Origin: an uncultured Caldilineaceae bacterium
GTDB taxonomy: Bacteria; Chloroflexota; Anaerolineae; Caldilineales; Caldilineaceae
Reading direction: 5' to 3'
DNA length: 64,000 nt
Assembly: GCA_951813625.1 (NCBI GenBank)
Contig: CATOTS010000019.1
Span: forward strand, 62,001 to 126,000
Below are positions 16,717-35,465 of the stretch, one piece after another; within the stretch, counting starts at the first letter, position 1; each line of letters opens with the position of its first letter. The notes beneath the pieces were generated by a model that saw only the letters and a program-made list of their open reading frames with translations, was not told where the DNA came from and made no database searches. Both the position numbers and the translations under genes were made by a program.

Positions 16717-17472
16717 ATGAACATTCTGCCACACGCTGTCAACCGCTTCAACGGCATCGAGATCAACACCGATGAGCTGCCCGACGATGCCGCCGCATTT
16801 GAGCAGGACCTGTCCGCTTCGCTGATCAAATGGGTCCAGGACGCGCGTTTTCTGGTCTGGCTGCATCTGCCCATAGAGCGGGCCGCGCTGGTCCCGATCG
16901 CGACCGCGGCCGGTTTCGTCTTTCACCACACCGAGCCCAACTATGTGCTGCTCATTCGCAAGCTGCAGGAAGACACGCTGGTCCCCGGCTACGCTACCCA
17001 CTACATCGGCGCCGGCGGCGTCGTCATCAACGCCCGGCGCGAGCTGCTCGTCGTCTCCGAGCGGCACCGCGGCTCGGCGCGGCCCTACTACAAGCTGCCC
17101 GGCGGCGCGCTCCATCCCGGCGAACACCTGGCCGCGGCGGTTATCCGCGAAGTCTACGAAGAGACCGGTGTCGAGACCGAATTCGAAGCTGTCGTCTGCT
17201 GGCGCCACTGGCACGGCTACCGCTACGGCAAGTCCGATATCTACTTTATCTGCCGCCTTTCGCCCCTGACCGAGGAGATCGAGCGCGACGACTGGGAGAT
17301 CGACGAGTGCCTGTGGATGCCGGTTGACGAATACTTGCAGCACGAGCTTGTAGGCGAATTCAACCGCGCCATCGTCGAGGCCGCCATCAAGACGCCCGGC
17401 CTAAAAAATCTGTGGATGGACGGCTACGACGACCCAACCAAGCGGGAGTTCTACTGGCCAGATTTTGACTAG
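16717..17472 (+). CDS. Nudix hydrolase with N-terminal pre-Nudix domain
   Basis: A 251-residue pyrophosphohydrolase. The Nudix box lies at about residues 130-152, with Gly130, Glu136 and the REVYEET core (Arg144, Glu145, Glu148, Glu149) that binds metal. The N-terminal 95 residues (FNGIEINTDELPDDAAAFEQ onward) resemble the acetyltransferase-like pre-Nudix domain found with NUDT6 and plant Nudix proteins. It should hydrolyse a nucleoside-diphosphate derivative in the cytoplasm; the exact substrate is unknown. The preceding DNA has a nested inverted repeat that might act in the leader. The LRR cluster starts 27 bp after its stop. Confidence 0.92.
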   Translation: MNILPHAVNRFNGIEINTDELPDDAAAFEQDLSASLIKWVQDARFLVWLHLPIERAALVPIATAAGFVFHHTEPNYVLLIRKLQEDTLVPGYATHYIGAGGVVINARRELLVVSERHRGSARPYYKLPGGALHPGEHLAAAVIREVYEETGVETEFEAVVCWRHWHGYRYGKSDIYFICRLSPLTEEIERDDWEIDECLWMPVDEYLQHELVGEFNRAIVEAAIKTPGLKNLWMDGYDDPTKREFYWPDFD

Positions 17473-17499: not shown

Positions 17500-20400
17500 G
17501 TGAGAACCATGAGCGAGAACTTCCGGCAACTGAAGGGTGTACGCTCGGTGTTGAAACGCGGCCGGCCTATTCCTTACCTGCAACGGCAAGTCCCCCCGCA
17601 GTGGTCATGCCCGCATAGACCGCTGTTTCTCCTTCTTTGCACGGTCCTTTCCCTTCTTCTGGCAGCCGCGTGCTCCGACGCCGACACTGCCCTCTGCCCG
17701 ACCGGACTCGACCACGACGCCGGCGAACAGGCCGGCCCCGGAACAGTCGAAGACTGCGAGATCCTTCTCAGCATCAGGGATACTCTGGCTGGCGATGCCT
17801 CGCTGAACTGGAACGAAGACTTCCCGATCGGCGAGTGGGAGGGTGTCGAGTTCGACGCCTCAACGCTGCCCGCGCGCGTAACGGAGCTTGCTCTCGTCGA
17901 CAAGGGCATGACCGGGACAGTTCCCCCGGCACTGGGCAGCCTCCCCCATCTTGAGCTTCTCGATCTCGCCCACAACGAGTTGACCGGCGAGATCCCGGCC
18001 GAATTGGGCAATCTCTCAAACCTGGGCGAGCTCAATCTGCCTTACAATCGCCTGACCGGCGCGATTCCCCCCGAGTTGGGCAGTCTTGCCGGCCTGAGGC
18101 TGCTGAGCCTCGCCTGGAACGACCTTGCAGGCGAGATTCCGCCCGCGCTGGGCAACCTCGAAGACCTGGAAGGGTTGGACCTGAAGGACAACACCCTGTC
18201 GGGCCTCATCCCCGCCGAAATCGGCCGCCTCTCCAAGCTGAGAGACCTGATCCTGAACGGCAACGAGTTGTCCGGGTCGGTCCCGTCAGAACTAGGCAAC
18301 CTCTTCCAGCTGCGCCATCTTCATCTGTTCAGCAACCAGCTGTCGGGAGAGATCCCGGTCGAACTGGCCCAACTCCCCAACCTGGAGGGCCTCTACCTCG
18401 CCAACAACCAGCTGACCGGGCCGATTCCAGTCGAGTTGGCCCAGATTCCGGTTCTCAAGTGGCTCTACCTGTCAGACAACAAACTGGAGGGCTCGATTCC
18501 GCCCGAACTGGGCAGCATCAGCACCCTGAGAATCCTTGGAATCCAGAACGCCAATATGACCGGCGAAATTCCACCTGAGTTGGGGCGTCTCTCCAATTTG
18601 CAGTCTCTGCGCCTTGAAGGAAACAATCTTTCCGGGCAGATCCCTCCAGAACTGGGCAATCTGAAGAACCTGGGCGACCTGGTCCTGGCCGGCAACAGCC
18701 TGACCGGCCCGATCCCGGTAGAGCTGGGCCGCCTCTCCCAACTCGATCAGCTGTGGCTTGCAGGCAACAAGCTGACCGGGGAAATCCCGACCGAACTGGC
18801 CCGCCTCACTGAGCTACGCTGGCTGGGCCTCAACTTGAACGACCTGTCAGGGCCGGTCCCGGCTGAACTGGGACACCTTTCCAATCTTGAGATTCTGGAC
18901 CTGTCCTACAACTATCTGGTGGGGCCCCTCCCGGCAGAGTTCGGCAATCTCGCACATCTGGAGAGGCTGCTCCTGGCCGGCGCCGGGCTGAATGGCGCCA
19001 TCCCGCCCGAGCTGGGCCGCCTTTCGAGACTCAAGGAGCTGCTACTCAACGGCAACAATCTGACCGGGAGCATCCCCCCCGAGTTGGGCGACCTGGCGAA
19101 CCTGGAAAAGCTGCACCTCTTCAACAACCATCTGCAGGGGGCGATTCCGCACGAGTTGGGCCGACTGGTCAACCTTCAGGAGCTTGCCCTCGACAGCAAC
19201 AGGCTTACCGGGACGGTTCCTGCCGAGCTTACGAACCTGGCAAACTTGCGGGAGTTCAGGGTTGTGTCCAATCCTCTGAGCGGCTGCGTTCCCGAGGCCT
19301 TCCGCGGACGCAGCAGCAATGATACCTTCAGCCTGGGGCTGCCCTACTGCGACGAGGTCACGCACGTTACGCTCTGCTCCAACGGTATCGCGATCGCCAA
19401 TCCCGGCCGCAATCCCGGCCTGGTCGAGGACTGCGCCACATTGCTGGAGATCAGGGACCTCCTGGGTGGGTACTATCCGCTGAACTGGACCGAACAGAGT
19501 TCCATTTACACGTGGCAAGGTGTTGGCCTGGGCGGCGAGGGAGATCTGTTGCGCGTGACCGCGCTTCGGCTTGAAGGCGCGGGTCTATCGGGGGTAGTGC
19601 CGCCCCAGCTGGCGCGGCTTACTCAGCTGGAGGGGCTGTGGCTCCAGGATAACCAACTCACGGGCGAAATTCCCGCCCAGTTGGGCCGGCTCGACAACCT
19701 GGAGTGGCTGTGGCTCCACGGCAACCAGTTGACCGGTCCAGTCCCCCCCGAACTTGGACGCCTGGCAAAACTGAAGGGGCTGAGCCTGCGCGACAACCGG
19801 CTGACCGGTACCATTCCGTCGCAGCTCGGCCTGCTTTCGCAGTTGGAGTGGCTGCGACTCGACGGCAACGGCCTCGAAGGCGAGATTCCCGCCGCGCTTG
19901 CCAACCTGGCGAACCTGCAAGGGCTGGGTTTGCACAGAAACCGGCTGACCGGAACGGTTCCGCCCGAACTGGGGCGTCTCCTCAACCTGGAGTGGCTGCG
20001 CCTCGACGACAACCGCCTTGCCGGTAGCATACCTTCCGAGCTGGGAAATCTGACGAAGCTGACCGGGCTGGGACTGCAGCAAAACCGTCTCTCGGGGCCC
20101 ATCCCCCCAGAACTGGGCAATCTCATCCTCCTGGAATGGCTGCACCTCTATGACAATGAGCTGACCGGACCGGTGCCGCCCGAACTGGGCAATCTCGCCC
20201 GGCTTGAGTGGCTGCGGCTCGACGGCAACCGCCTCACCGGGGAAATACCGTCCCAATGGGGCCAGCTTTCGAAATTGCGCGAGCTGCGCCTCTCGCAAAA
20301 CCAGCTGACGGGCCCCCTGCCGGCCGAGTTGAGCGCACTTCCCATTCTGCGCGAGCAAGATCTCGACGCCGCGCCGTTGAGCGGCTGCGTCCCCGATAGG

Positions 20401-21414
20401 CCGGGCGCTGCGACGAGCGCTGAACAGACCGGAATCGGCCTGCCCATCTGCGGCCTGGTCGAGCAGTGCTCCCTCGGCGTCGCCGTCGCCAATCCGCACG
20501 CGGATGCAGGTCTGGTCGCGGACTGCGCCGCGCTGCTGGAGATCAGGGACGAGTTGACGGGAGATCCCGCCCGCCCGCTCCTGAACTGGAGCGCCCAGCT
20601 CTCGATCCGCGAATGGGACGGCGTAGTTGTCGAGCTGACCGCGGACGGCCCACGCGTGGCCAGGTTGTGGCTGTACGGCAAGGGGCTGTCCGGCGCTGTT
20701 CCGCCCGGCCTGAGCCGGCTCCCCCGCCTGAGAGTGCTGGTCCTGCACGAAAACCTACTGTCGGGCGGCATCCCATCGGAACTGGGCCAGCTCAGCCAAC
20801 TGGAGTGGCTGCGCCTCGACGCCAACACTCTGACCGGCAGAATACCTGCAGAACTGGGCGCCCTCTCCAGCCTGTTGGGACTGGGGCTGCAGGAGAACCG
20901 GCTGACTGGTGGCATACCGGCCGACCTGGCAAATCTCTCGCAGTTGGAATGGTTGCGCCTCGACGGCAACCTGCTCACGGGGACCATTCCGCCCGAGCTA
21001 GGCCGCCTGACCTGGCTCGAGGGGCTGGGGCTGCAACAGAATCTCCTGACCGGCGCGATCCCAGCTTCACTCGGCGCCCTGACACGTCTCGAATGGCTGC
21101 ATCTGTTTGACAACCGTCTGTCCGGTCCGATCCCGCCTGCACTCGGCAATCTCGCCAATCTCCAATGGCTCCGTCTCGACAACAACGCACTGACCGGCGC
21201 GATTCCGCCCGACCTGGGCAACCTCGTCAAGCTGCGCGAGCTGCGCCTGAACGCGAACCAGCTGACCGGCGAAATCCCCGCCGGACTGGAAGGCCTCCCG
21301 TTTCTTGGCGAGCTCCGCTTGGCCGGCAACCGTCTTGGCGGCTGTGCGCCCGCCGGACTGCGCGCCCTGGATGAGAGCGACCTGGCGCAGACCGGTCTGC
21401 CGTTCTGTGAGTGA
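17500..21414 (+). CDS. Exported three-cassette leucine-rich-repeat lipoprotein
   Basis: A 1304-residue exported protein, the largest of six paralogues. GTG at 17500 has AAGGAG (17486-17491) 8 nt upstream. After a basic N-tail comes a hydrophobic segment ending in LLLAAAC, a good lipobox with Cys58. Three cassettes follow. Each starts with a Cys-containing N-cap (pattern LVEDC...LLEIRD...LNW...W-GV) and ends with a C-cap (GC-P...GLP-C). I count 19, 11 and 9 plant-type LRRs of 24 residues (consensus N-LTG-IP-ELG-L). Cassettes 2 and 3 alternate LEWL- and GLGL-type repeats, giving a 48-residue superrepeat. Such LRRs form curved binding surfaces; ligand and role are unknown. Adhesion or recognition outside the cell is plausible. 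Confidence 0.9.
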   Translation: MRTMSENFRQLKGVRSVLKRGRPIPYLQRQVPPQWSCPHRPLFLLLCTVLSLLLAAACSDADTALCPTGLDHDAGEQAGPGTVEDCEILLSIRDTLAGDASLNWNEDFPIGEWEGVEFDASTLPARVTELALVDKGMTGTVPPALGSLPHLELLDLAHNELTGEIPAELGNLSNLGELNLPYNRLTGAIPPELGSLAGLRLLSLAWNDLAGEIPPALGNLEDLEGLDLKDNTLSGLIPAEIGRLSKLRDLILNGNELSGSVPSELGNLFQLRHLHLFSNQLSGEIPVELAQLPNLEGLYLANNQLTGPIPVELAQIPVLKWLYLSDNKLEGSIPPELGSISTLRILGIQNANMTGEIPPELGRLSNLQSLRLEGNNLSGQIPPELGNLKNLGDLVLAGNSLTGPIPVELGRLSQLDQLWLAGNKLTGEIPTELARLTELRWLGLNLNDLSGPVPAELGHLSNLEILDLSYNYLVGPLPAEFGNLAHLERLLLAGAGLNGAIPPELGRLSRLKELLLNGNNLTGSIPPELGDLANLEKLHLFNNHLQGAIPHELGRLVNLQELALDSNRLTGTVPAELTNLANLREFRVVSNPLSGCVPEAFRGRSSNDTFSLGLPYCDEVTHVTLCSNGIAIANPGRNPGLVEDCATLLEIRDLLGGYYPLNWTEQSSIYTWQGVGLGGEGDLLRVTALRLEGAGLSGVVPPQLARLTQLEGLWLQDNQLTGEIPAQLGRLDNLEWLWLHGNQLTGPVPPELGRLAKLKGLSLRDNRLTGTIPSQLGLLSQLEWLRLDGNGLEGEIPAALANLANLQGLGLHRNRLTGTVPPELGRLLNLEWLRLDDNRLAGSIPSELGNLTKLTGLGLQQNRLSGPIPPELGNLILLEWLHLYDNELTGPVPPELGNLARLEWLRLDGNRLTGEIPSQWGQLSKLRELRLSQNQLTGPLPAELSALPILREQDLDAAPLSGCVPDRPGAATSAEQTGIGLPICGLVEQCSLGVAVANPHADAGLVADCAALLEIRDELTGDPARPLLNWSAQLSIREWDGVVVELTADGPRVARLWLYGKGLSGAVPPGLSRLPRLRVLVLHENLLSGGIPSELGQLSQLEWLRLDANTLTGRIPAELGALSSLLGLGLQENRLTGGIPADLANLSQLEWLRLDGNLLTGTIPPELGRLTWLEGLGLQQNLLTGAIPASLGALTRLEWLHLFDNRLSGPIPPALGNLANLQWLRLDNNALTGAIPPDLGNLVKLRELRLNANQLTGEIPAGLEGLPFLGELRLAGNRLGGCAPAGLRALDESDLAQTGLPFCE

Positions 21415-21502
21415 GTAGAAACGGCTCGACTTGACTTCCTAAATGCCCTCTGCGTCCGGCGCCGGCGCAAGATGCTCCGGACACATTCTGGGAGGCGCGA
21501 AG

Positions 21503-23413
21503 ATGAAATGGGGACCTTGTAGCTCTTTGTTGCCCTTGGCGGAGCAATGCCGGCTCGAACCCGCAGGTTCGCTGCCTGCTAGCGTTCCGAAACGGCGTCA
21601 AAGCCGAAGATCTGTTCTTGCCGCCATGGGCGTTCTGGCGGCGTTTCTCTCCGCGTCGACCTGGCTGGGCTGCAACGGATGGTCTCCTTCATCTCCGTAT
21701 ACCCCTCCCCCTACCCCGGTTATCCCGACCCAATGCACAAACGGCATCGCCGTCGAGGACCCGCTGGAGCATCCCGGCCTGGTCGAGGACTGTGAAACGC
21801 TGTTGCGGCTGCAGAAAGCATTGGGTGGAGGCGTGCTGACCTGGAGCGACAATACACCCATTCAGGGTTGGCAGGGCATCACCGTCGATCCAACCGGGCT
21901 GCCACTGCGAGTTTCTGGCATGGATTTCAGTCGGGACCCGGGCTTCCGCCATCTGCGCGGACTTGTTCCGCCCGAATTGAGCAAACTCAAAGGGCTGAGA
22001 GTGCTGGATCTCTCCGGCCACTATCTGAGAGGCAGAATCCCTGCCGAGCTGGGAGACCTTCCCGAACTGGAAGTGCTGACTCTCGGCGACAACCTTATTA
22101 GGGGGGAAGTCCCGCTTTCGCTGGGCCGCCTGTCAAATTTGCGGCATTTGGACCTGGGAAACAATCGGCTGGAGGGGGGCATACCGCCCGAACTCGGCAG
22201 TCTTGCGAATCTCAGATTTCTGGACCTCAGCCAAAACGGCATCACATCGCCGATTCCTGGAATGCTGGGCGGCATCGTCGGGCTGAACACCTTACATCTG
22301 CACGAAAACGAGCTTTCTGGGAGCATTCCTTCAGAGTTGGGCAACCTCGTCGGGCTGGTCAAGCTGACCCTGCACGACAACAATCTGACAGGCGGCGTTC
22401 CTTCAGTATTGGGCAATCTCCCCGGGCTGAGCGAGCTGACCTTGAATGACAATAACCTTTCCGGCGGCGTTCCTCCGGAGTTGGGCCGTCTGTCCGCCCT
22501 GCGCGCGCTGGATCTTTCTCGCAATCAGTTGTCGGGTGAGATCCCGGCAGAGCTGGCCAATCTTTCCAATCTTCGGGAGTTGCACCTCGACAGGAACGGT
22601 CTGACAGGTAACATCCCGGCTGAGCTTGGTAAACTCAGCCAACTTCAGCTGCTGAACATCGCCTCAAACCGGTTGACCGGTGAGATACCAACCGCGTTGG
22701 GAAACCTGAGATTGCTTCAGGAGTTGGGCCTAAACCGGAACCAATTGACGGGAAACATACCGCCACAACTGGGCCGGATTACCCGGTTGAACATAATAGA
22801 CGTCAGCGGAAACCAGTTGACCGGCGACATACCGGACGAGTTCGGCACGCTTTCCCAATTGTGGTGGCTGTTTATGGGGGATAACCAATTGAAGGGCTGT
22901 ATCCCTGCACCGTTGCGTTCTCTCTCGAATAATGTCCTTTCAGAAACCGGGCTACCGTATTGCGACCTGGCCGCCATCTGTTCCAATGGGAAAGCGGTTG
23001 CCGATCCAGAAGGAGACGTAGGGCTTGTCGCAGACTGCGCGCTCCTACTGGAGGCCCGGGACTTGTTGACCGGCAACTCTGTTCTGAACTGGAACGAGCA
23101 GCTTTCCATCCGCAGATGGAGAGGCGTCGGCATTGACGATTCGATGGACAAGCCGCGTGTGACGGCACTGACTCTGGTAGACAGGGGCCTGACGGGAGAG
23201 GTACACCCTGCGCTCGGGGGCCTCCCGTTTCTCCAGACGTTGGACCTTTCCTGGAACTATCTGAGCGGAGAGATCCCGGAGAGCCTGGGCCGCCTGACCG
23301 AACTCAAGGAGCTGCGGTTGGAAGGCAACCGGTTGACAGGGTGCCTTCCCCACATCTGGCGAGATATCGAAGTCAACGACTTGGCCGAAACAGGACTGGA
23401 GTTCTGCAATTGA
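21503..23413 (+). CDS. Exported two-cassette LRR lipoprotein-like protein
   Basis: A 636-residue LRR paralogue. ATG at 21503 is preferred over upstream in-frame starts because GGGAGG (21490-21495) lies 7 nt before it. A basic N-tail (RRQSRR) precedes a hydrophobic stretch ending in ASTWLGC, with Cys57, then a Pro-rich linker (PPPTPVIPT). The first cassette has a Cys N-cap (CTNGIAVEDPLEHPGLVEDC) and about 13 LRRs. The second is a small cassette of 2 LRRs ending in GCLPHIW and LEFCN. WLGC is not a textbook lipobox, but its conservation among four paralogues suggests lipid attachment or another specific signal. Its TGA overlaps the TTG start of the next gene. Confidence 0.9.
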   Translation: MKWGPCSSLLPLAEQCRLEPAGSLPASVPKRRQSRRSVLAAMGVLAAFLSASTWLGCNGWSPSSPYTPPPTPVIPTQCTNGIAVEDPLEHPGLVEDCETLLRLQKALGGGVLTWSDNTPIQGWQGITVDPTGLPLRVSGMDFSRDPGFRHLRGLVPPELSKLKGLRVLDLSGHYLRGRIPAELGDLPELEVLTLGDNLIRGEVPLSLGRLSNLRHLDLGNNRLEGGIPPELGSLANLRFLDLSQNGITSPIPGMLGGIVGLNTLHLHENELSGSIPSELGNLVGLVKLTLHDNNLTGGVPSVLGNLPGLSELTLNDNNLSGGVPPELGRLSALRALDLSRNQLSGEIPAELANLSNLRELHLDRNGLTGNIPAELGKLSQLQLLNIASNRLTGEIPTALGNLRLLQELGLNRNQLTGNIPPQLGRITRLNIIDVSGNQLTGDIPDEFGTLSQLWWLFMGDNQLKGCIPAPLRSLSNNVLSETGLPYCDLAAICSNGKAVADPEGDVGLVADCALLLEARDLLTGNSVLNWNEQLSIRRWRGVGIDDSMDKPRVTALTLVDRGLTGEVHPALGGLPFLQTLDLSWNYLSGEIPESLGRLTELKELRLEGNRLTGCLPHIWRDIEVNDLAETGLEFCN

Positions 23414-25863
23414 AGCCTGACGCTCCCGCCCCCAAGTCGCTGAGACGACGTCAGACCCCCGACAGGCGAAAACAGTTTGTCCGGGCCCCTATTGTCTGGT
23501 TGGCAGCAATTGCGGCTCTGTTCCTGTCAGCGCGGACAGGGCATGCCCTGGCGCAGTCCTCCGCAAATCCCTGTTCCAACGGCACTGTCGTTGCCGAACC
23601 GGAGGTAAACGCCAAACTGGTCGCCGACTGCGTCGTCCTCTGGCAGATAAAGGACGCGCTCGCCGGCGTTGCCGAGCTGAATTGGGGCCCGCTACTGCCC
23701 CTGGATGACTGGCAAGGGATCGGCGCCGGCGGTGAAACCAGCCCCGCGCGCGTTTGGGGGATATCGCTGGTCGGGCACGCCGAAACAAACTTCCTCACCG
23801 GAGAGTTACCGGCCGTACTGGCCGGCCTCACAGGGCTTGTGCACCTGAACCTGTCCGGCAACCGCTTGACTGGCCCCATTCCTCCCGAGTTGGGACACCT
23901 CCTCAACCTCCAGTCCCTTCGGCTGAACCACAACCGCCTGACCGGCCCGATTCCTCAGGAGCTGGGGGCGCTCGCCGGCCTGCGCGCGCTGGCCCTGAAC
24001 GACAACATGCTGACGGGATTGATCCCCGCCAGCCTCGGCCGCCTCACCAATCTGGAGTCGCTTCACCTTGACGACAACCACCTGACGGGAGACATCCCGG
24101 CCGCCCTGAGCAACCTCCGCAATCTTTGGGTGCTATGGCTGGGCGGCAACTGGCTGGCCGGATGTCTTCCCAAGGGCCTGGACAGTCGCGGCGGCAACGA
24201 TCTCGCGCAGCTGGGAATGCCGTCCTGCTCCTATCAGGCCCGGCTGGACGCCTGCCGCGCAAGCCCCGCCTTTGCCGTACACCGGGAGAACGAGGGCCTG
24301 ATCGAAGACTGCGCAACGCTGCTGGAGGTTAGAGATCAGCTGGCAGGGTACGCAACTCTCAATTGGAGCGCCCAGCTCCCTGTCGAAGATTGGGAGGGAA
24401 TCAGGGTCAGCGCGAACAATCTTTCCGGCATGCCCCGGGTTTCCGTACTGGCGCTGGCCAAACGGGGACTGACCGGATTCATCCCGCCCGAAATTGGAAA
24501 GCTTACCCATCTGTATTCACTGTGGCTCGGTGGCAACGAACTATCCGGCGAGCTTCCGGCGGAGCTGGGCAACCTGACCGAAATGGGCCTACTGCAGCTG
24601 CATACCAATGACTTTACAGGCGAGATCCCGCCCGAAATGGGTCAACTCTACAGAATGTTTGGAATGTCCCTGGAACAGAGCGGGTTGACCGGCCAGATTC
24701 CGCCCGAACTGACCGCCATGCAAGGTCTCGAAGGACTGTGGCTCCAAGGAAACAGCTTCGAGGGATGCATTCCGCACTCGCTGCATGGGTCGCTCGACGA
24801 CCTGTACTTGCTGGAACTGCCTTCCTGCCCCGGATGGCAGCATTGGGGCAGCTGCTTCTACAACGGTGCGATTGATGAGCCAATCTACAACCCTGGCCTC
24901 GTTCACGACTGCTCGGTCCTCTTGGAGGTCAAGGAGAACCTTGGCGCCGGAGCCTTGCTGAACTGGAGCGAGGCACTCCCGCTGCGCGAGTGGGACGGCA
25001 TAACCATTGGCCAACGGCGGAGCTGGCTTCGGGTTACCGAGCTAAGGCTTGAAGGCAGGGGACTCTCGGGCCCTGTCCCGCCGGCGTTGAGCGCGCTGAA
25101 CATGCTCGAAGAGCTGTGGCTCAGCGAAAACAGCCTGTCGGGCACAGTCCCGGCTGAGCTCGGCAGGCTCACGAGACTGAAGTGGCTATGGCTGGCCGGT
25201 AACCAGTTGACGGGAGACATACCCCCCGACCTGTCAAGGCTCACCCGCCTGGAGGGCCTGGGCCTCCACCACAACCTGCTGACAGGCCCCATTCCTCCTG
25301 ATTTGACCGACCTCGGCCAATTGCGCTGGCTGCGTCTCGATCACAACGGTCTATCGGGGACCATCCCAGCCGGTCTGGGCAATCTCAACGGCCTGGAGGG
25401 ACTGGGCCTGCACAGAAACCGTCTGACCGGAGAAATTCCCCCCGATCTGGGCAGGCTGAAGAAGCTCAAGTGGCTGCGGCTGGACGGCAACCAACTGACC
25501 GGCCCTATCCCGGCCGCGCTGGGCGGCCTGACCAGCCTGGAAGGCCTGGGCCTGCAGGAAAACAGGCTCAGCGGCCCCATTCCAACTGCCCTGGGCTTCC
25601 TTGCAACCCTGGAATGGCTGCACCTCTTCGACAATGCGTTGACAGGCAAAATCCCGGCTGAACTGGGTGGTTTGTCCAACGTGAAGTGGCTTCAGCTGGA
25701 CGGCAACCAACTGACCGGCGAAATACCCGCCGAATTGGGCCAACTCGCCCATCTCAGGGAACTGAAGCTCACAGGCAACCGCTTGCACGGCTGCATCCCG
25801 CAGTCGCTTCGCTCACTGGAGGACAGCGATTTGGACGAAACCGGGCTGCCTTTCTGTACGTAG
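23410..25863 (+). CDS. Secreted three-cassette LRR protein
   Basis: An 817-residue LRR paralogue that lacks the conserved Cys signal of its neighbours. I chose the TTG at 23410, which overlaps the upstream stop (TTGA); GGAG at 23398-23401 lies 8 nt upstream. The N-terminus has a basic region, a hydrophobic core and GHALAQSS, which looks like a signal peptidase I site, so this member may be released rather than lipid-anchored. Cassettes carry about 5, 4 and 10 LRRs with Cys N- and C-caps. The third cassette shows the same alternating LKWL/GLGL superrepeat as in the 1304-residue paralogue. Translational coupling to the upstream gene is likely. The ligand is unknown. Confidence 0.88.
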   Translation: MKPDAPAPKSLRRRQTPDRRKQFVRAPIVWLAAIAALFLSARTGHALAQSSANPCSNGTVVAEPEVNAKLVADCVVLWQIKDALAGVAELNWGPLLPLDDWQGIGAGGETSPARVWGISLVGHAETNFLTGELPAVLAGLTGLVHLNLSGNRLTGPIPPELGHLLNLQSLRLNHNRLTGPIPQELGALAGLRALALNDNMLTGLIPASLGRLTNLESLHLDDNHLTGDIPAALSNLRNLWVLWLGGNWLAGCLPKGLDSRGGNDLAQLGMPSCSYQARLDACRASPAFAVHRENEGLIEDCATLLEVRDQLAGYATLNWSAQLPVEDWEGIRVSANNLSGMPRVSVLALAKRGLTGFIPPEIGKLTHLYSLWLGGNELSGELPAELGNLTEMGLLQLHTNDFTGEIPPEMGQLYRMFGMSLEQSGLTGQIPPELTAMQGLEGLWLQGNSFEGCIPHSLHGSLDDLYLLELPSCPGWQHWGSCFYNGAIDEPIYNPGLVHDCSVLLEVKENLGAGALLNWSEALPLREWDGITIGQRRSWLRVTELRLEGRGLSGPVPPALSALNMLEELWLSENSLSGTVPAELGRLTRLKWLWLAGNQLTGDIPPDLSRLTRLEGLGLHHNLLTGPIPPDLTDLGQLRWLRLDHNGLSGTIPAGLGNLNGLEGLGLHRNRLTGEIPPDLGRLKKLKWLRLDGNQLTGPIPAALGGLTSLEGLGLQENRLSGPIPTALGFLATLEWLHLFDNALTGKIPAELGGLSNVKWLQLDGNQLTGEIPAELGQLAHLRELKLTGNRLHGCIPQSLRSLEDSDLDETGLPFCT

Positions 25864-25865
25864 TA

Positions 25866-25897
25866 AGAATTGCACATGGTCAGAATTGCACATGGTC
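25866..25897 (+). repeat. Two-copy 16-bp tandem repeat after LRR gene
   Basis: AGAATTGCACATGGTC occurs twice in direct tandem just after the stop codon at 25861-25863. It marks the start of a 1.4 kb gene-poor, repeat-bearing gap. Confidence 0.7.
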
Positions 25898-26470
25898 AGA
25901 CGACGTGAAGTCGACTATCTCCGCGACTGGGAGCCGCGCCGGTTCTTCTGTATGGCACTGCAGGAGCAACGGTACCGTGCGGAGTGAAGCCAAAGGCCGG
26001 CCGTACTGCGAAGAAGAGGGTCCCGCCCCCCATGAACATCACAGAGGCTGAAATAAATGTGCAGCCTGCTCCAAAAGAACCTCATACAGATCGAATCTGA
26101 GCTGCTTCCCCAACGAAACCCGGAGATTCCGCCCAACGGTCGTACCGGCGGATCGCCCAAGAATCCAGCCCGCCCCCTCTTCTGAGAGTCCGCCGTTCCA
26201 AGAAGGACCCCGATGAGAAACCAGGCACGCATAACAAGAATTGACCCAAATACCGGGTTCCCGTGCAAGAGCCAGCCGCGCGCGCTATAGTTGGACCATG
26301 ACCCGCGCGACATACGCCGGCAATGACACAAGAAACAACAGGGCAGGCGCCGCGCAACCCGATTTCACGCAACTCCGGGCAAGAGAATTGAAACCGTACT
26401 ACGCTGTCATCATCATGCCAGTCTAACCGAGGGATTCCAGCCAGGATCGGCCAAAAAAACTGGATCGACC

Positions 26471-26520
26471 CGACCTGACCGGACCTGACCGGACTTAACC
26501 GGACCTGACCGGACTTCGCT
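26471..26520 (+). repeat. 10-bp tandem repeat, five units
   Basis: Five consecutive 10-bp units related to GGACCTGACC (variants CGACCTGACC and GGACTTAACC; the last unit is degenerate). No coding frame uses it convincingly. Confidence 0.7.
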
Positions 26521-26882
26521 CGACTTCGGCCGCACAAGACAATCGCTAGGGATACCATACGACCTTGACTGATCTCACATCACAAAGACACAGCCGCAGC
26601 CAGCCCGGCAGCACACAGGAACAGTCCGCCAAAACGACCCGCTCATGAATTGAAACGGCAAAACAAGGCGAAATCCAGTGCAAGAGCTTTCCGACCATGC
26701 TACTCTGTAAACCATCATGAGAAACTGTCCACCCGCTCCGGCCCTAATCGCACCAATAAACAGTTTTCCAAATTCCTGCTACGCTGCAAACGTCATGCAA
26801 TTCAAGCCGCCAAATTCCGTCCGAAATACGCTCCAAATACCGCCAATCCCGGCGCCCGATACCCCCGCCCAAAAGAAAAAAA

Positions 26883-26925
26883 ATTGGACGACATTGACTG
26901 ACATCGGACGCTATTGGACGACATT
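26883..26925 (+). repeat. Repeated 14-mer ATTGGACGACATTG
   Basis: The same 14 bases occur at 26883-26896 and 26912-26925, separated by a partly similar spacer (GACATCGGACG). Origin and role are unknown. Confidence 0.6.
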
Positions 26926-26966
26926 GGTCGACCTAGAGCGGATGCTTGCCCTACCTTATCCACATA

Positions 26967-27014
26967 AACAATGACGACGACTCGCCCCTGCTGGGAATCC
27001 CCTACTGCGAGTAA
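26967..27014 (+). pseudogene. Remnant of an LRR-protein C-cap
   Basis: One frame reads NNDDDSPLLGIPYCE and then TAA at 27012-27014. This closely matches the end of intact paralogues (pattern NDL--TGLPFC/E-stop). No LRRs or start codon precede it in frame, so it appears to be the last fragment of a deleted gene. Confidence 0.55.
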
Positions 27015-27098
27015 ACCTTTCCCGTCATTGGGCGGGAACGATTCCAGCGCCCTTCTTTGGGCGCGTTAACAATGCTCCCATATTCATTTTGTTTGCTC

Positions 27099-27194
27099 CA
27101 GGGGATCGAGGCGGGGACCATTCCGGTGGAACTTGGCAAGAATGCGCCCATTGAAGTACTGTCTCTACGCGGCAATCAACCGCGAGGAACAGTC
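27099..27194 (+). pseudogene. Remnant LRR unit upstream of the 27.3 kb LRR gene
   Basis: The frame that is continuous with the downstream LRR gene reads AGTIPVELGKNAPIEVLSLR then GNQPRGTV. This aligns with one LRR plus the start of the next (G-IP-ELG-L--LEVLSL-GNQL-G-VP), with decayed consensus positions. It lies before the signal sequence of the next gene and cannot be part of a normal exported protein, so I treat it as a decayed fragment. Confidence 0.55.
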
Positions 27195-27305
27195 GCCTCC
27201 GCCCCGAGACCCATGCATTGCCCGGATTCCAGGCTGCTAAGCAAAGACAGACCGAAAGGAAGCCGTTTCGGACGTAAGAGAAGCAACGCCAGGAGCGTGG
27301 ACACC

Positions 27306-28634
27306 GTGCCAGGCCAGGCCGAAAGTCTGTCGGAATTCGAGAAGCTCACCGACACTCCGCACGCCGCGTCCTGGCTGCAACGTGATGCCGGAGTGCGCCA
27401 AGCAGCCAGAAGGACCATCCTGTCGGCGCTGCTCCTCCTGCTGTTGTTCCTCACCGCGTCCACCTGGCTGGGTTGTTTTCCACTTCCACCTCCACTCCGT
27501 CCTCCGCCGCCTACCCTGCCCCCCGCCGACCCGAACGAGTGCTCCAATGGCATCGCAGTCCCTCACCCGTCCTATCACTTTGAGCTGGTCGACGACTGCG
27601 AAACCCTCCTGCTCGTCCGCGACAGGCTCGCCGGAGACGGTAGGCAGTTGTACTGGAGCGGGCAAAATTCGATCCTGGAATGGAGAGGCGTAGAGGTCGA
27701 CGATTCAGACGATTCAGACGGGTCAGTGAGGGTTGTTTCGCTGCGTCTCTATAGCTCTGGCCTCGAAGGCGATATCCCACCGGACCTGGGCAAGCTCTCC
27801 CATCTGTCCGCGCTTACGCTCTACGAAAACCGGCTGAAAGGAACCATCCCACCAGAATTGGCCAACCTCTCCAAGCTGAAGTGGTTGGATCTCGATCACA
27901 ACCGGTTGACAGGTAGCATACCGGAAGAGCTCGGCACTCTCACCAACTTGAGGACCTTTAGCGCCGGCGCCAATCAACTGACAGGCGCCCTGCCCGCATC
28001 CCTCGGCAACCTCTCCCTGCTTTGGAAGTTGAACCTCGCCGCCAATCAACTATCAGGTCCGATTCCCGCCGAGCTGGGCAATCTCTCCAATCTGGAACAT
28101 ATGGACCTTGCCCACAACCAGTTGACGGGAAGCATTCCGCCAGAGCTGGGTCTTCTCGAGAACCTGCGCTACCTGTACTTGGCCGACAACCAGTTGACCG
28201 GAGAGATTCCGGCAGAACTGGGCAGACTTGCCAACCTCATGTTATTGGAACCGGCGGTGAACCAGTTGACAGGTCCGATTCCGCCTGAGCTGTCCAATCT
28301 CACAAATCTGTACTATCTGCACCTGCATGAGAACGACCTCTCGGGGGAGATACCCCCTCAGCTGGGAAGCCTCGCATCACTAGTCTCGCTGGAACTATCG
28401 CATAACCAGTTGACCGGCGAGATCCCTGGGGAACTGGCCACCCTCAGCAAGCTGAGGCTTCTGAACCTCTCCGACAACCGGTTGGAGGGAGCGATTCCGG
28501 CTGAACTTGGCACACTGGCAGAACTGGCGCAGCTGTTCATCGCCGGAAATTTTCTCGACGGCTGTCTGCCGCCAACCTGGCGAACAATTGACAAAAACGA
28601 CCTGGCCAGGTCCGGGCTGACCTTTTGCGAGTAA
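27306..28634 (+). CDS. Exported single-cassette LRR lipoprotein-like protein
   Basis: A 442-residue LRR paralogue with one cassette of about 11 LRRs. The frame is open from 27057, but the upstream part contains a decayed LRR; GTG at 27306 has AGGAG 10 nt upstream and gives a 57-residue leader to Cys, the same length as in the paralogue at 21503. The leader ends LTASTWLGC and is followed by a Pro-rich linker (PPPLRPPPPTLPP). The N-cap is CSNGIAVPHPSYHFELVDDC, with an Asp/Ser insertion after the W-GV motif (DDSDDSDGS). The C-cap is GCLPPTW...SGLTFCE. The start is the least certain among the six. Confidence 0.85.
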   Translation: MPGQAESLSEFEKLTDTPHAASWLQRDAGVRQAARRTILSALLLLLLFLTASTWLGCFPLPPPLRPPPPTLPPADPNECSNGIAVPHPSYHFELVDDCETLLLVRDRLAGDGRQLYWSGQNSILEWRGVEVDDSDDSDGSVRVVSLRLYSSGLEGDIPPDLGKLSHLSALTLYENRLKGTIPPELANLSKLKWLDLDHNRLTGSIPEELGTLTNLRTFSAGANQLTGALPASLGNLSLLWKLNLAANQLSGPIPAELGNLSNLEHMDLAHNQLTGSIPPELGLLENLRYLYLADNQLTGEIPAELGRLANLMLLEPAVNQLTGPIPPELSNLTNLYYLHLHENDLSGEIPPQLGSLASLVSLELSHNQLTGEIPGELATLSKLRLLNLSDNRLEGAIPAELGTLAELAQLFIAGNFLDGCLPPTWRTIDKNDLARSGLTFCE

Positions 28635-28766
28635 ACAATGAAAGGTGCGCCAAAGGGACATCTTCTCGACCCGTCGCCCTCACTGGAAGGAATTCAGGAT
28701 CCGCTTGCTGAAGGGGGCCTGATAGTTCACACCGGTCTTCGCGCTGCAACAGGGAGGACGGCAAGG

Positions 28767-30404
28767 ATGGCTGACGATGCAATGACTACAATCAATCACA
28801 TCCAACCGCGACGGAAGACCAGAAGAAGGGTTCTGATTCCGCCGCTCGTGCTTCTCCTGTTCCTCAGCATGTCCACCTGGCTTGGGTGCAACATGGGGTA
28901 TGCATCCCTACTGCCGCCTACCACTATCCCAGCCGATCCAAGCGAATGTTCCAATGGGATCGCAGTTCCCGACCCCTTGGAGAATCCCGGCCTGGTGGAG
29001 GATTGCGAGATTCTTCTGGGCATTAGAGATTCCCTCGCCGCCAGAGCTCGGTTGAATTGGAGCCAGAAGCAATCAATCTACCACTGGGAAGGCATAGGCA
29101 TTGACACGGCAACGCTACCCTTGCGAGTAACATGGCTGCGGATCAATCATAAGTTTCTGGCGGGAACCATTCCTCCGGAACTGGGGAGCCTCTCAAGTCT
29201 TGCAGTACTAGATCTCAGCAAGAACGACTTAATCGGAGAGATTCCGGCCGAGTTGGGAGATCTGGCCAACCTGGTTGAGCTCAGACTCGCTTCCAATGAA
29301 CTAACCGGAATTCTGCCGCCCGAACTGGGGAACCTTTCCAATCTGCTGGTTCTGATGGTTTCCTGGAACGATCTGACAGGAGAGATCCCCGCAGAGTTTG
29401 GGAATCTATCCGGGCTGCAATGGCTTAGGCTCGACGACAACAATCTTTCAGGATCCATTCCACCCGAATTGGGGAAACTCTCGAATCTATTGGGTCTCTA
29501 CCTTTCCAGGAACCCCCTTGAAGTAGCCATTCCGTCAGAGCTGGGCAATCTTACAAATTTGAAGGGCCTGTATCTGGAGGAAAACTATCTGACGGGGGAG
29601 ATACCGCCGCAACTTGGCAACCTCTCTAATCTCGAGGGAATGTACCTCACCACGAACCAGCTGACCGGAACTCTTCCGGCTGAACTGGCCCAACTCACAA
29701 AGCTCCGCTGGCTCGACCTCTCCAGGAACGATCTGACCGGCGGGATCCCTCCGGAGTTCGCCGGCCTCTCCAGCCTCAGTTCGCTTGAACTCCCCTGGAA
29801 TCAGTTGTCGGGTGCCATCCCCGGGCAGCTGGGCGACCTACCCTCATTGACCCGGCTGCGACTCTTTCCTGGAAACCGGTTTAGCGGCTGCATTCCTGTG
29901 AAGCTGCGGCAGATATTTGGTGAATATATGGGGCCGCCCGTTCTACCGTTCTGCGACCGTATTCGGACCTGTTCCAATGGCGTAGCCGTCGCCCAACCGC
30001 AGGAAAACGCAGCGTTGGTCGCGGACTGCGCTTTACTCCTCGATGCCCGCGACACGCTGGCCGGCGATGCCTCCCTCAACTGGACTGCAAGCGTACCCAT
30101 CAGCCTCTGGCAGGGCGTAGAGATTGGCGCTTCCCTGGAGCAGCCGCGCGTGACGAAAATTCGGCTCATCGACAGAGGACTGACCGGCCGGATTCCTTCC
30201 ATGTTGGCAGGCCTCGACCGCCTGGATACCCTGGGCCTGGCCTGGAATCACCTGCAAGGGGACGTTCCCGAAGACCTGAAACGATTGGACGGTCTACGGG
30301 AAATCCGTCTTGAAGGCAACGCGTTGAGCGGCTGCCTGCCGCAGAATTGGCAAACAATAGAGGTAAGCGACTTGTCCGAGTCAGGGTTGCGCTTCTGTCA
30401 GTGA
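28767..30404 (+). CDS. Exported two-cassette LRR lipoprotein-like protein
   Basis: A 545-residue LRR paralogue. The frame opens at 28638, directly after the previous stop, but ATG at 28767 has AGGGAGG (28751-28757) 9 nt upstream and gives a compact signal: basic RRKTRRR, a hydrophobic core and MSTWLGC with Cys41. The first cassette has the N-cap CSNGIAVPDPLENPGLVEDC and about 10 LRRs, one of them degenerate (NPLEVAIPSELG). The second is the small two-LRR cassette ending GCLPQNW and LRFCQ. Cap cysteines are retained in both cassettes. The role is presumed extracellular binding. Confidence 0.9.
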   Translation: MADDAMTTINHIQPRRKTRRRVLIPPLVLLLFLSMSTWLGCNMGYASLLPPTTIPADPSECSNGIAVPDPLENPGLVEDCEILLGIRDSLAARARLNWSQKQSIYHWEGIGIDTATLPLRVTWLRINHKFLAGTIPPELGSLSSLAVLDLSKNDLIGEIPAELGDLANLVELRLASNELTGILPPELGNLSNLLVLMVSWNDLTGEIPAEFGNLSGLQWLRLDDNNLSGSIPPELGKLSNLLGLYLSRNPLEVAIPSELGNLTNLKGLYLEENYLTGEIPPQLGNLSNLEGMYLTTNQLTGTLPAELAQLTKLRWLDLSRNDLTGGIPPEFAGLSSLSSLELPWNQLSGAIPGQLGDLPSLTRLRLFPGNRFSGCIPVKLRQIFGEYMGPPVLPFCDRIRTCSNGVAVAQPQENAALVADCALLLDARDTLAGDASLNWTASVPISLWQGVEIGASLEQPRVTKIRLIDRGLTGRIPSMLAGLDRLDTLGLAWNHLQGDVPEDLKRLDGLREIRLEGNALSGCLPQNWQTIEVSDLSESGLRFCQ

Positions 30405-30525
30405 AAAGTGGAGATCGCGGTTCCGTCAGTGCCAGATAAAACGACGAACTGGTTCATCACGCCCTGCACCCGCCGACAATGCTGACGTTCGAATCGACAT
30501 CAAATAGAAACAAGGAGTTGCCAAG

Positions 30526-32673
30526 ATGGAACTACCCAACGGGAGAGTAATGCAAGTGTCAGTAGCGGAGCGCCAGTCCCCGAGCCAGGCCTCCATCTTT
30601 GCCGACCAGCGCAGGGAAACGCGTGAACGCAGTCGCAAAAGGGTTGCCGCTGCACTGCTTGTGCTGGTGACATTCCTCACTGCCTCGATCTGGCTAGGCT
30701 GTGTGCAACCGCCGCCACCGCCGTCACCGCGGCCACCGCCGCCGACTCCGATCCCAACACCTTTCCCAGCTGACCCGGCCGCGTGTTCCGCCGGCGTCGC
30801 GGTCGAGACGCCGCTGGAGAATCCCGGACTGGTCGAAGACTGCGTAACACTCTTGAAGATAAGAGACAACCTGGTGGGCGAGGGAAGGTACTTGTACTGG
30901 AGCGGCGAGACTTCCATTCTGACTTGGGAAGGGGTTGTTGTCGACACCGAAGCAGAGCAGCCCAGAGTCGTAGGCCTCAACCTTTATGCGTACGGGCTGG
31001 GGGGAGAAATCCCTCTGCAACTTGGCTCTCTTGCCGCATTGCAGGAACTGGTCCTGGGCAGAAACAGTCTGACCGGGGCCATCCCGACACAGCTGGGCGA
31101 TCTGTCCAATCTGGAGGTCCTTGCCCTCTTCTCCAACGACCTGACCGGAAGCCTGCCCGCTGAACTGGGCCAGCTCTCCAATCTTTCGTCACTGCTTGTC
31201 GAGGAGAATGAGCTAACCGGCGGAATTCCGCAGGAGTTGGGCAATCTCTCTGATCTGATCTGGCTGAATCTGGGACACAACCAGTTATCTGGTGAAATCC
31301 CCGCCGGGCTAGGCAGGCTTTCCAGTCTCCAGGGTTTTGACGTCGGCGGCAACCGGCTGACTGGACCAATCCCACCCGAGTTGGGCAGGCTTTCTGAGCT
31401 GACCGGACTCATACTCGAAGACAACAGATTGACGGGAAGCGTTCCAACAGAGTTAGGCAATCTCTCGAGCTTGGAGCGGCTTGACCTCTCCCGCAATCAG
31501 CTTACAGGTGGCATTCCATCAGAATTGGCCCGTCTTTCAGTCCTGCGCCATCTTCGCCTTTCCTCCAACCAGTTAACGGGCGGCATATCTGCCGGGCTGG
31601 GCAGTTTAACTAATCTGGAGTCCCTGCACCTGGAGGCCAACCAGCTGTCGGGAGGCATTCCTGAAGAACTGGGCAATCTCAATGGTCTGTACGGGCTATA
31701 CCTGCACGAGAACGAACTCTCAGGAAGCATACCCGGCGAGCTGGGCAGTCTTGCAGAGTTGCGACGGCTCTCAGTCTACTCCAACCGCCTGACGGGCGAG
31801 ATTCCGGCAGAGTTGGGCAGTCTCAACCGTCTGTGGGAGTTGAAGCTCGCCGGGAACGAACTTACAGGAGTCATTCCTCCAGAGTTGGCCCGCCTTTCCA
31901 GCGCAGAGCTGATAGATCTCTCAGGCAATGACTTTTCTGGGCCCATTCCTCCTGAAATGGGTGGACTCTCGCGACTGGGCCAGCTGAAGCTCTCGGGCAA
32001 CCAACTCACGGGAGAGATTCCTGTAGAACTGGGTGGTCTCCGCTGGCTCTACGAATTGGATCTTTCCGACAACAAGCTGGATGGAGAGATTCGAGCGGAC
32101 CTGAGCCCCCTGTCGGATCTGGGCGCGTTGTTCGTTTCCGGCAATCAATTGGGCGGGTGCTTCCCCGAAACCTGGCGTAGCATCAATGAGAATGACCTTT
32201 TGGACGCAGCAGTTCCCTTCTGCAGCCGCCAGGCCCTTTGCTCCAACGGCGTTGCCGTTGAAAATCCAAACGAGAATGGCGGGCTGGTATCGGACTGCGC
32301 CCTGCTTCTGGATCTCCGCGACACACTGGCCGGCGCGGGCTCGCTGGACTGGAGCGAAGATGTCTCCATCGACACCTGGAAAGGGGTAGAGATTGGCGCC
32401 TACGATGAGGAGCAGCGGGTAACCGCGCTCCAGCTTGTCGACAACGGGCTGACAGGCCAGGTTCCCGCACAGCTGGCAGGCCTGGACGGCTTGCAGACCC
32501 TGGATCTCTCCTGGAATCTGCTAGGGGGAGAGATTCCGGACAGCTTGGGCCGGCTGGACAGTCTACGGGAACTCCGTCTCGAAGGGAACCAGCTGTGGGG
32601 ATGTTTGCCGTCGAAGTGGCGCACACTCCACGACAGCGACCTGGCCGAGACAGGGCTGCCCTTCTGCCGATAG
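30526..32673 (+). CDS. Exported two-cassette LRR lipoprotein-like protein
   Basis: A 715-residue LRR paralogue. ATG at 30526 has AAGGAG (30512-30517) 8 nt upstream. A basic N-tail is followed by a hydrophobic stretch ending LTASIWLGC (Cys59) and a marked Pro-rich linker of PPPPPSPRPPPPTPIPTP type. Cassette 1 has about 16 LRRs, cassette 2 has 2 LRRs and ends GCLPSKW...GLPFCR. One repeat is altered at the conserved IP positions (GGISAGLG), another at GEIRADL. This is the last gene of the LRR cluster; the next gene is unrelated. Confidence 0.91.
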   Translation: MELPNGRVMQVSVAERQSPSQASIFADQRRETRERSRKRVAAALLVLVTFLTASIWLGCVQPPPPPSPRPPPPTPIPTPFPADPAACSAGVAVETPLENPGLVEDCVTLLKIRDNLVGEGRYLYWSGETSILTWEGVVVDTEAEQPRVVGLNLYAYGLGGEIPLQLGSLAALQELVLGRNSLTGAIPTQLGDLSNLEVLALFSNDLTGSLPAELGQLSNLSSLLVEENELTGGIPQELGNLSDLIWLNLGHNQLSGEIPAGLGRLSSLQGFDVGGNRLTGPIPPELGRLSELTGLILEDNRLTGSVPTELGNLSSLERLDLSRNQLTGGIPSELARLSVLRHLRLSSNQLTGGISAGLGSLTNLESLHLEANQLSGGIPEELGNLNGLYGLYLHENELSGSIPGELGSLAELRRLSVYSNRLTGEIPAELGSLNRLWELKLAGNELTGVIPPELARLSSAELIDLSGNDFSGPIPPEMGGLSRLGQLKLSGNQLTGEIPVELGGLRWLYELDLSDNKLDGEIRADLSPLSDLGALFVSGNQLGGCFPETWRSINENDLLDAAVPFCSRQALCSNGVAVENPNENGGLVSDCALLLDLRDTLAGAGSLDWSEDVSIDTWKGVEIGAYDEEQRVTALQLVDNGLTGQVPAQLAGLDGLQTLDLSWNLLGGEIPDSLGRLDSLRELRLEGNQLWGCLPSKWRTLHDSDLAETGLPFCR

Positions 32674-32766
32674 GGTATCGCTGCCTCTTGTCGTTTACTT
32701 CAAGAGCGTTCCAAAACAGTGCTATCCTTTTCCGGGAAGGCCCCGCCATCTACCAGGCAGGAGCAA

Positions 32767-35385: not shown

Positions 35386-35465
35386 GGGTGCCAACCGGTT
35401 GAAACGGTGGATCAACTATGCGATAATGGATCGGGAATCCGCCTCTTTCGCGCCTGTTGACCGCC

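What the first reader, a model, noticed from the sequence alone, without database searches (positions are those of the whole stretch)
17500..32673. Cluster of six exported modular LRR proteins with 13 capped cassettes
Six same-strand paralogues (1304, 636, 817, 442, 545 and 715 residues) are built from one repeating unit: a Cys N-cap (LVEDC...LNW...W-GV), a variable run of plant-type 24-residue LRRs, and a Cys C-cap (GC-P...GLP-C). I count about 114 LRRs. Cassette number per protein (1-3) and LRR number per cassette (2-19) vary widely, as expected for a locus that diversifies by recombination to bind different ligands. No system built this way is known to me by name in bacteria.
Basis: partly seen in the sequence, partly recalled or inferred. 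Interest (0 to 1): 0.8.

Follow-up and report, generated by a model that had tools for sequence, protein, structure and literature searches.

The report
Cluster of modular LRR surface lipoproteins
A bacterium carries six neighbouring genes for exported binding proteins built from plant-receptor-like leucine-rich-repeat modules; related species have zero or one such gene at the same spot, so the spot gains and loses receptors over evolution, but it is not an actively shuffling diversity generator.

Summary
Window 17500-32673 holds six same-strand genes with 13 cassettes and 114 plant-type 24-residue LRRs. All 52 cysteines from the first cap onward sit at four fixed cap positions per cassette, and none lies in an LRR. 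Five proteins have a lipobox and one a plain signal peptide. One two-cassette protein models well (pLDDT 89) as two plant-receptor-like solenoids.

Between the same flanking genes, the 16 other species of the genus hold one 20-LRR lipoprotein (7), a remnant (4, including the sister species) or nothing (5). Only this genome has six genes. Cassette content therefore varies by gene birth and death. I found no sign of current recombination: no exact repeat of 28 bp or more lies in the cluster. The single-gene orthologues all keep exactly 20 LRRs, with dN/dS 0.12-0.26 and a conserved inner face.

New here: three of the 13 cassettes (p1c2, p1c3, p3c3) preserve, in order, the first 9-11 inner-face strands of that single-gene protein. 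The other long cassettes do not. I conclude these are tethered ligand-binding (adhesin or receptor) lipoproteins combining a conserved genus-specific binding module with unrelated ones. The ligand is unknown.

The parts
16717..17472 (+). NUDIX hydrolase gene, left border of the slot, single-copy and syntenic in all 17 genomes of the genus
   Evidence: Pfam NUDIX 1.5e-18; 81-96% identity in 17 of 17 genomes
17500..21414 (+). p1, 1304 aa, lipobox LAAAC, three cassettes (19, 11, 9 LRRs)
17695..19350 (+). p1c1, cassette with an inner face unrelated to the slot gene; its N-cap groups with the G011 remnant
19375..20451 (+). p1c2, cassette keeping in order the inner-face strands 1-11 of the genus' single 20-LRR protein (56-65% of inner-face residues)
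20467..21408 (+). p1c3, cassette keeping inner-face strands 3-11 of the same protein (53-60%)
21503..23413 (+). p2, 636 aa, lipobox TWLGC, cassettes of 13 and 2 LRRs
21734..22963 (+). p2c1, cassette with its own inner face
22979..23407 (+). p2c2, terminal 2-LRR mini-cassette (QTLDLSW/KELRLEG)
23410..25863 (+). p3, 817 aa, plain signal peptide (no lipobox), cassettes of 5, 4 and 10 LRRs
24853..25857 (+). p3c3, cassette keeping inner-face strands 1-10 of the 20-LRR protein (60-64%); its N-cap groups with that family's C54/C59 clade (99/96)
26102..26935 (+). 3'-truncated copy of a dispersed non-coding repeat (full length about 1.13 kb) that splits the cluster 3 + 3
27306..28634 (+). p4, 442 aa, lipobox TWLGC, proline-rich spacer, one cassette of 11 LRRs (27540-28628)
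28767..30404 (+). p5, 545 aa, lipobox TWLGC, cassettes of 10 and 2 LRRs (28947-29954, 29970-30398); modelled
30526..32673 (+). p6, 715 aa, lipobox IWLGC, proline-rich spacer, cassettes of 16 and 2 LRRs (30784-32223, 32239-32667); 3' part survives as a pseudogene in sister species G011
32719..34983 (+). ADP-ribosylglycohydrolase-family gene, right border of the slot
   Evidence: Pfam ADP_ribosyl_GH 9.7e-55; 76-84% identity in 15 of the 16 other genomes of the genus, only a fragment in G004

Best explanation
The cluster encodes a set of exported, mostly lipid-anchored ligand-binding proteins (adhesins or receptors). Each cassette is a plant-type LRR solenoid closed by a two-Cys N-cap and a two-Cys C-cap, and cassettes are strung head to tail behind a signal sequence and, in several, a proline-rich spacer, so that they stand off the cell envelope. 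Two kinds of binding module are combined. Cassettes p1c2, p1c3 and p3c3 are shortened descendants of the single 20-LRR lipoprotein that other species of the genus keep at the same place, and they retain its alternating W-x-R/H-x-D and G-x-G-x-H/Q inner face, probably for the same ligand. The other long cassettes carry unrelated inner faces, probably for other ligands. The set arose by old gene duplication and cassette fusion at a place where the gene is often lost. Shown: anatomy, cysteine pattern, conserved inner face, synteny, gain and loss, lack of recent repeats. Inferred: export, disulfides, surface display, binding function. Unknown: ligand, and whether it comes from a host, other bacteria or a polymer.
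For: Lipobox or signal peptide in all six. All 52 cysteines are at caps, none in 114 LRRs, as expected of extracytoplasmic disulfide-capped solenoids. The p5 model has pLDDT 89 and pTM 0.80; best structural matches are plant peptide-receptor ectodomains, GSO1 Z 39.0 over 310 residues at 1.6 A, and MIK2. In the slot orthologues inner-face positions 2, 3, 5, 7, 8 are conserved (0.67-0.89) while outer positions 14, 17, 21, 23 are not (0.37-0.42), with dN/dS 0.12-0.26. The ordered inner face is shared only by the slot genes, their C54/C59/C10/C144 paralogues and p1c2, p1c3, p3c3 (permutation p at or below 0.0025). Same-type caps elsewhere sit beside LysM, FN3 or PD40 propeller domains and behind lipoboxes. 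Slot content varies 0/1/6 across 17 species.
Against: No ligand, expression or localisation data exist. Signal calls rest on motif and hydrophobicity, not a trained predictor. Cys-Cys distances in the model could not be measured. In G004 the same cassette type is attached to an N-terminal helical domain without an obvious signal peptide, so the cassette itself does not prove surface location. Conservation of an inner face shows constraint, not which ligand.
Confidence: 0.62

Rival explanations
1. An actively recombining diversity generator, like lamprey VLR genes or silent-cassette antigenic variation: cassettes and LRRs are exchanged within the locus to make new binders.
For: Modular capped cassettes, variable LRR numbers and six paralogues; LRR-internal deletions in relatives G001 and G005 and a p1-p6 fusion-like remnant in G011; a relative (G004) has an array with exact repeats of at least 200 bp.
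Against: Window cluster: zero repeated 28-mers, best tandem match 76-77%; orthologous single gene has exactly 20 LRRs in 11 copies; no donor cassettes close in sequence were seen elsewhere in the genome (best about 60% identity).
Confidence: 0.1
2. The proteins are general envelope, matrix or polysaccharide-binding structural proteins. The two-repeat inner-face period of the conserved module (about 10 A if the LRR rise is about 5 A) matches a disaccharide repeat, so the module may run along a linear glycan rather than recognise a protein.
For: Lag-2 excess of inner-face identity in the single 20-LRR proteins (C59 p 0.003, G010 0.018, G002 0.029; G012 0.069) and p1c2 (0.022), absent from outer-face positions; Trp, Arg, Asp and His at the repeated positions.
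Against: Not significant in every copy; a two-LRR ancestral duplication could give the same period; no glycan-binding family match.
Confidence: 0.2
3. Host-association factors: eukaryote-like LRR proteins by which a sponge-associated symbiont binds its host or avoids phagocytosis.
For: A published survey of sponge Chloroflexi found LRR genes only in Caldilineae and SAR202 (PMC6306507), resembling the split distribution of this cap type (own genus plus genera of other classes of the phylum); the nearest named genome hit is an Anaerolineaceae MAG.
Against: The match to the paper is by pattern only.
Confidence: 0.3
4. Recognition part of an anti-phage or self/non-self signalling system.
For: In G004 the same cassettes lie behind PP2C and Ser/Thr kinase genes and carry an adaptor-like helical domain.
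Against: The window genes have no signalling partner nearby, no PADLOC match for the two tested and signal sequences.
Confidence: 0.05

Closest known systems
Ectodomains of plant LRR receptor kinases (GSO1, MIK2, HSL1, PEPR1) and PGIP
   Same: 24-residue LxxLxLxxNxLxGxIPxxLxxLxx repeats, N-terminal helical cap with W...W-GV, solenoid fold (Z up to 39)
   Different: No transmembrane segment or kinase; several complete capped solenoids per protein; lipid anchor; N-cap mostly below Pfam LRRNT_2 detection (2 of 18 members, best E 0.0015)
LRR genes reported in sponge-associated Caldilineae and SAR202 Chloroflexi (Bayer et al. 2018, PMC6306507)
   Same: LRR proteins in what is probably the same phylum; a patchy distribution between classes
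   Different: That paper counts LRR genes; the passages read describe no cassettes, caps, slot or binding face
Listeria internalins and Leptospira LRR proteins (LIC10831, LIC11098, LIC12759)
   Same: Exported bacterial LRR proteins thought to bind host molecules
   Different: Other repeat class and caps; NCBIfam internalin and LIC_11051 models score far below their cut-offs
Lamprey variable lymphocyte receptors
   Same: LRR cassettes with Cys-bearing N and C caps
   Different: No sign of assembly from donor cassettes or of recent recombination in the window
Type-B capped LRR proteins of the same genome (DREALVALYNATDGxNWTxNTNWL...W-GV)
   Same: Same repeat and same cassette logic, up to about 20 cassettes in giant ORFs
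   Different: N-cap without the two cysteines; usually far longer proteins

Membership tests
Plant-type (24-residue) LRR proteins | Repeat LxxLxLxxNxLxGxIPxxLxxLxx in tandem, solenoid fold | tested here: met
   114 repeats of 24 residues; Pfam LRR_1/LRR_8; Z 39 to GSO1
Plant-type LRR N-cap domain LRRNT_2 (PF08263) | Match to the Pfam model above its cut-off | tested here: inconclusive
   Only 2 of 18 N-caps match, best E 0.0015; the p6 N-cap aligns with that of GSO1
LRR receptor kinases | Transmembrane segment plus kinase domain | tested here: not met
   No kinase domain in any of the six
Internalins (NCBIfam InlA, InlH and related) | Score above the curated cut-off | tested here: not met
   Best 127.9 against cut-off 1600 bits
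Bacterial lipoproteins | Charged N-terminus, hydrophobic core, lipobox ending in Cys | tested here: met
   Five of six by pattern; p3 lacks it. No trained predictor was available
Recombining LRR cassette systems (VLR-like) | Near-identical donor cassettes or variants that differ by cassette exchange | tested here: not met
   No repeated 28-mer in the cluster; single-gene orthologues fixed at 20 LRRs
Recombining LRR cassette systems (VLR-like) | Variation between cells or strains of one species | not testable with these tools
   One genome per species is held; no reads
Sponge-symbiont eukaryote-like proteins | Encoded by a sponge-associated bacterium | not testable with these tools
   No habitat or organism name for G000
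Known anti-phage defence proteins (PADLOC) | Model match | tested here: not met
   p5 and p6 have none; the other four were not scanned

The most novel reading that the evidence does not exclude
A single genomic slot works in this genus as a 'receptor port'. One conserved LRR binding surface is vertically kept, often lost, and in this species recycled three times as a ready-made cassette inside multi-cassette lipoproteins beside new surfaces. This would be a slow, modular route by which bacteria build multispecific surface receptors from plant-receptor-like parts.
Probability: 0.3. Interest if true: 0.65.

Novelty: new variant of a known kind. Interest (0 to 1): 0.48.

Why it matters
Plant-type LRR proteins are common in some environmental bacteria, but their ligands are largely unknown. 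Here one inner-face pattern is conserved across a genus, recycled intact in three cassettes of another architecture, and absent from neighbouring cassettes. That gives a short list of residues and of minimal constructs with which a ligand of this class could be found. The slot, with 0, 1 or 6 genes in otherwise syntenic genomes, also offers a natural comparison of what such proteins do.

Tried and rejected
Assembly artefact: rejected, repeats are too diverged to collapse. Recent tandem duplication or conversion: rejected by the same test and by Tandem Repeats Finder. A tree of caps alone (84 columns) was too short to give the full order of duplications; only starred nodes are used. Whether the sister species G011 lost a whole cluster or never had one is not fully settled. 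Its remnant joins p1-like 5' and p6-like 3' ends, which a deletion explains, but the outward ends of a tandem expansion would look alike; deletion is favoured because paralogue caps are far more diverged than the flanking genes. Naming the organism: the single genome-contig scan gave only a distant Anaerolineaceae MAG; the 16S gene could not be compared with named references. No solved structure matches the N-cap profile by sequence. A decayed LRR C-cap upstream of p4 was suspected, but its score of 2.6 bits is too weak. Inner-face rows of p5c1 were one residue out of register and are ignored; the corrected reading is.
Full report
WHAT IS THERE. Six + strand genes fill window 17500-32673 between a NUDIX gene and an ADP-ribosylglycohydrolase-family gene. 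A cap-to-cap parse gives 13 cassettes with 19, 11, 9 / 13, 2 / 5, 4, 10 / 11 / 10, 2 / 16, 2 LRRs, 114 in all. The N-cap consensus is CSNGxAV..P.ENPGLVxDCxxLLxIRDxLAGxxxLNW......W.GV and the C-cap is GCxP......DL...GLPxC. From the first cap on there are 52 cysteines, all at these four positions per cassette, and none in the LRRs. Five proteins carry a lipobox after an Arg/Lys-rich start and a hydrophobic core; p3 has a signal peptide without lipobox. Neighbouring cassettes are only about 5-8 residues apart, Cys to Cys. The assembly is not a concern: no 28-mer is repeated in the cluster.

FOLD. The p5 model (residues 83-588, six-row alignment) has mean pLDDT 89 and pTM 0.80 and shows two solenoids, each with an N-cap helix. 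Its best structural matches are plant receptor ectodomains; GSO1 gives Z 39.0 over 310 residues at 1.6 A and 37% identity. The p6 N-cap aligns with the GSO1 N-cap by sequence, yet Pfam LRRNT_2 detects only 2 of 18 N-caps.

THE SLOT. NUDIX (81-96% identical) and the glycohydrolase gene (76-84%) are neighbours throughout the genus, G004 keeping only a fragment of the latter. What lies between them differs. There are 15.2 kb with six genes in G000. There is one 20-LRR, single-cassette lipoprotein in G002, G006, G010, G012, G021, G023 and G024. Internally deleted or truncated remnants lie in G001, G003 and G005. Nothing recognisable lies in G004, G007, G008, G009 and G022. In G011, the sister species (100/99), there is a pseudogene whose 5' part aligns best with p1 (61.5%) and whose 3' part aligns best with p6 (65%). 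On the tree of the flanking genes these states are scattered, so loss has happened repeatedly. The intact 20-LRR family of G000 itself lies elsewhere, on contigs C54 and C59, with orthologues in G011 and G023.

CONSTRAINT AND SHARED BINDING FACE. The 11 intact copies of the 20-LRR protein have the same cap-to-cap length (575-576 residues; one row was trimmed at an earlier motif in the script) and dN/dS of 0.12-0.26. Inner-face positions 2, 3, 5, 7, 8 score 0.67-0.89 in conservation, against 0.37-0.42 at outer positions 14, 17, 21, 23. Reading the inner-face residues strand by strand, p1c2, p1c3 and p3c3 match the 20-LRR protein in register at 53-65% (offsets 0, 2 and 0 repeats; permutation p at or below 0.0025, the limit of 400 shuffles). 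No other window cassette does (uncorrected p above 0.04). In a scan of all fetched loci the pattern was found only in the slot genes, their C54/C59/C10/C144 paralogues and these three cassettes. The conserved stretch alternates W-type and G-type strands (EWLRLDG, xGLGLHR). The lag-2 excess is seen for inner but not outer positions. The 2-LRR terminal mini-cassettes of p2, p5 and p6 also resemble each other.

RECOMBINATION. In the window the best internal repeats are 76-93% over short stretches and nothing exact reaches 28 bp. In G004, a complete single-contig genome, a different array has 2,320 repeated 28-mers and exact repeats of at least 200 bp. So this kind of cassette can recombine actively, but the window locus shows no trace of doing so at present.

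DISTRIBUTION. The N-cap profile finds 17 sites in G000 (13 of them in this cluster) and sites in 16 of the 17 genus genomes. In the class it was found otherwise only in one species of one other genus of the family (298 genomes). In the phylum it occurs in four more genera of three families outside the class (400 genomes). In those lineages it sits in lipoproteins that are often tandem. In other proteins it is joined to LysM, FN3 or PD40 propeller domains. Extracellular domain company supports surface use. The patchiness suggests horizontal spread. It resembles the published report that, among sponge Chloroflexi, only Caldilineae and SAR202 carried LRR genes (PMC6306507), but neither phylum name nor habitat was shown here.

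MECHANISM. I read these as tethered, disulfide-capped, multi-domain binding proteins: one conserved genus-specific binding module reused in p1 and p3, plus unrelated modules, produced by slow gene birth and death. Export, disulfides and binding are inferred; the ligand is unknown.

Noticed in passing
window 26102-26935; other copies e.g. G000 C28:68409-69252, C18:47804-48648, C4:7529-8374 (L166-L195): Dispersed non-coding repeat, about 1.13 kb when complete, with roughly 25 long copies at 76-83% identity in G000 and diverged ones in G011 and G023, not in the other 14 genus genomes; the 5' end is constant, the window copy is 3'-truncated, no Rfam match. MITE-like element or large repeated RNA.
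   Followed up: partly
L102 (G004 C1:1769000-1786000), also L159-L162: Conserved operon in several genus members: PP2C phosphatase, Ser/Thr kinase, then a protein with an N-terminal helical domain (often two copies, no Pfam match) and a variable C-terminus (LRR, transmembrane or coiled coil). In G004 it carries 13 type-A cassettes in a freshly recombining array with incomplete cap cysteines; looks like an effector-associated-domain (EAD) style conflict system with LRR sensors.
   Followed up: partly
L086-L089 (G000 C10, C30, C34, C39): Giant ORFs of 2,300-4,500 residues with up to about 20 type-B capped LRR cassettes each; the genome has about 110 LRR match stretches to p1.
   Followed up: partly
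L132 (G206 C159:2500-12820): The type-A N-cap occurs near the C-terminus of PD40 beta-propeller proteins with no LRR detected by Pfam in the one tested, so the cap may be an independent two-Cys domain.
   Followed up: partly
L084 2056-4477 and L085 844-3259 (G000 C54, C59): Two 96% identical copies of the 20-LRR lipoprotein region on two contigs; strain redundancy in the MAG or a segmental duplication.
   Followed up: partly
L129 (G010 C119:41000-46000): A 949-residue ORF joins what reads like a RecQ-like fragment to two type-A LRR cassettes; the RecQ reading is by eye.
   Followed up: no
window 30708-30743 and 26467-26514: Short tandem repeats: 9 bp x4 in the proline-rich spacer of p6 (in frame, could vary spacer length) and 10 bp x4.8 inside the dispersed element.
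   Followed up: no
window 35457-36425: D12-class adenine-specific DNA methyltransferase two genes downstream of the cluster, also present downstream in G011.
   Followed up: no
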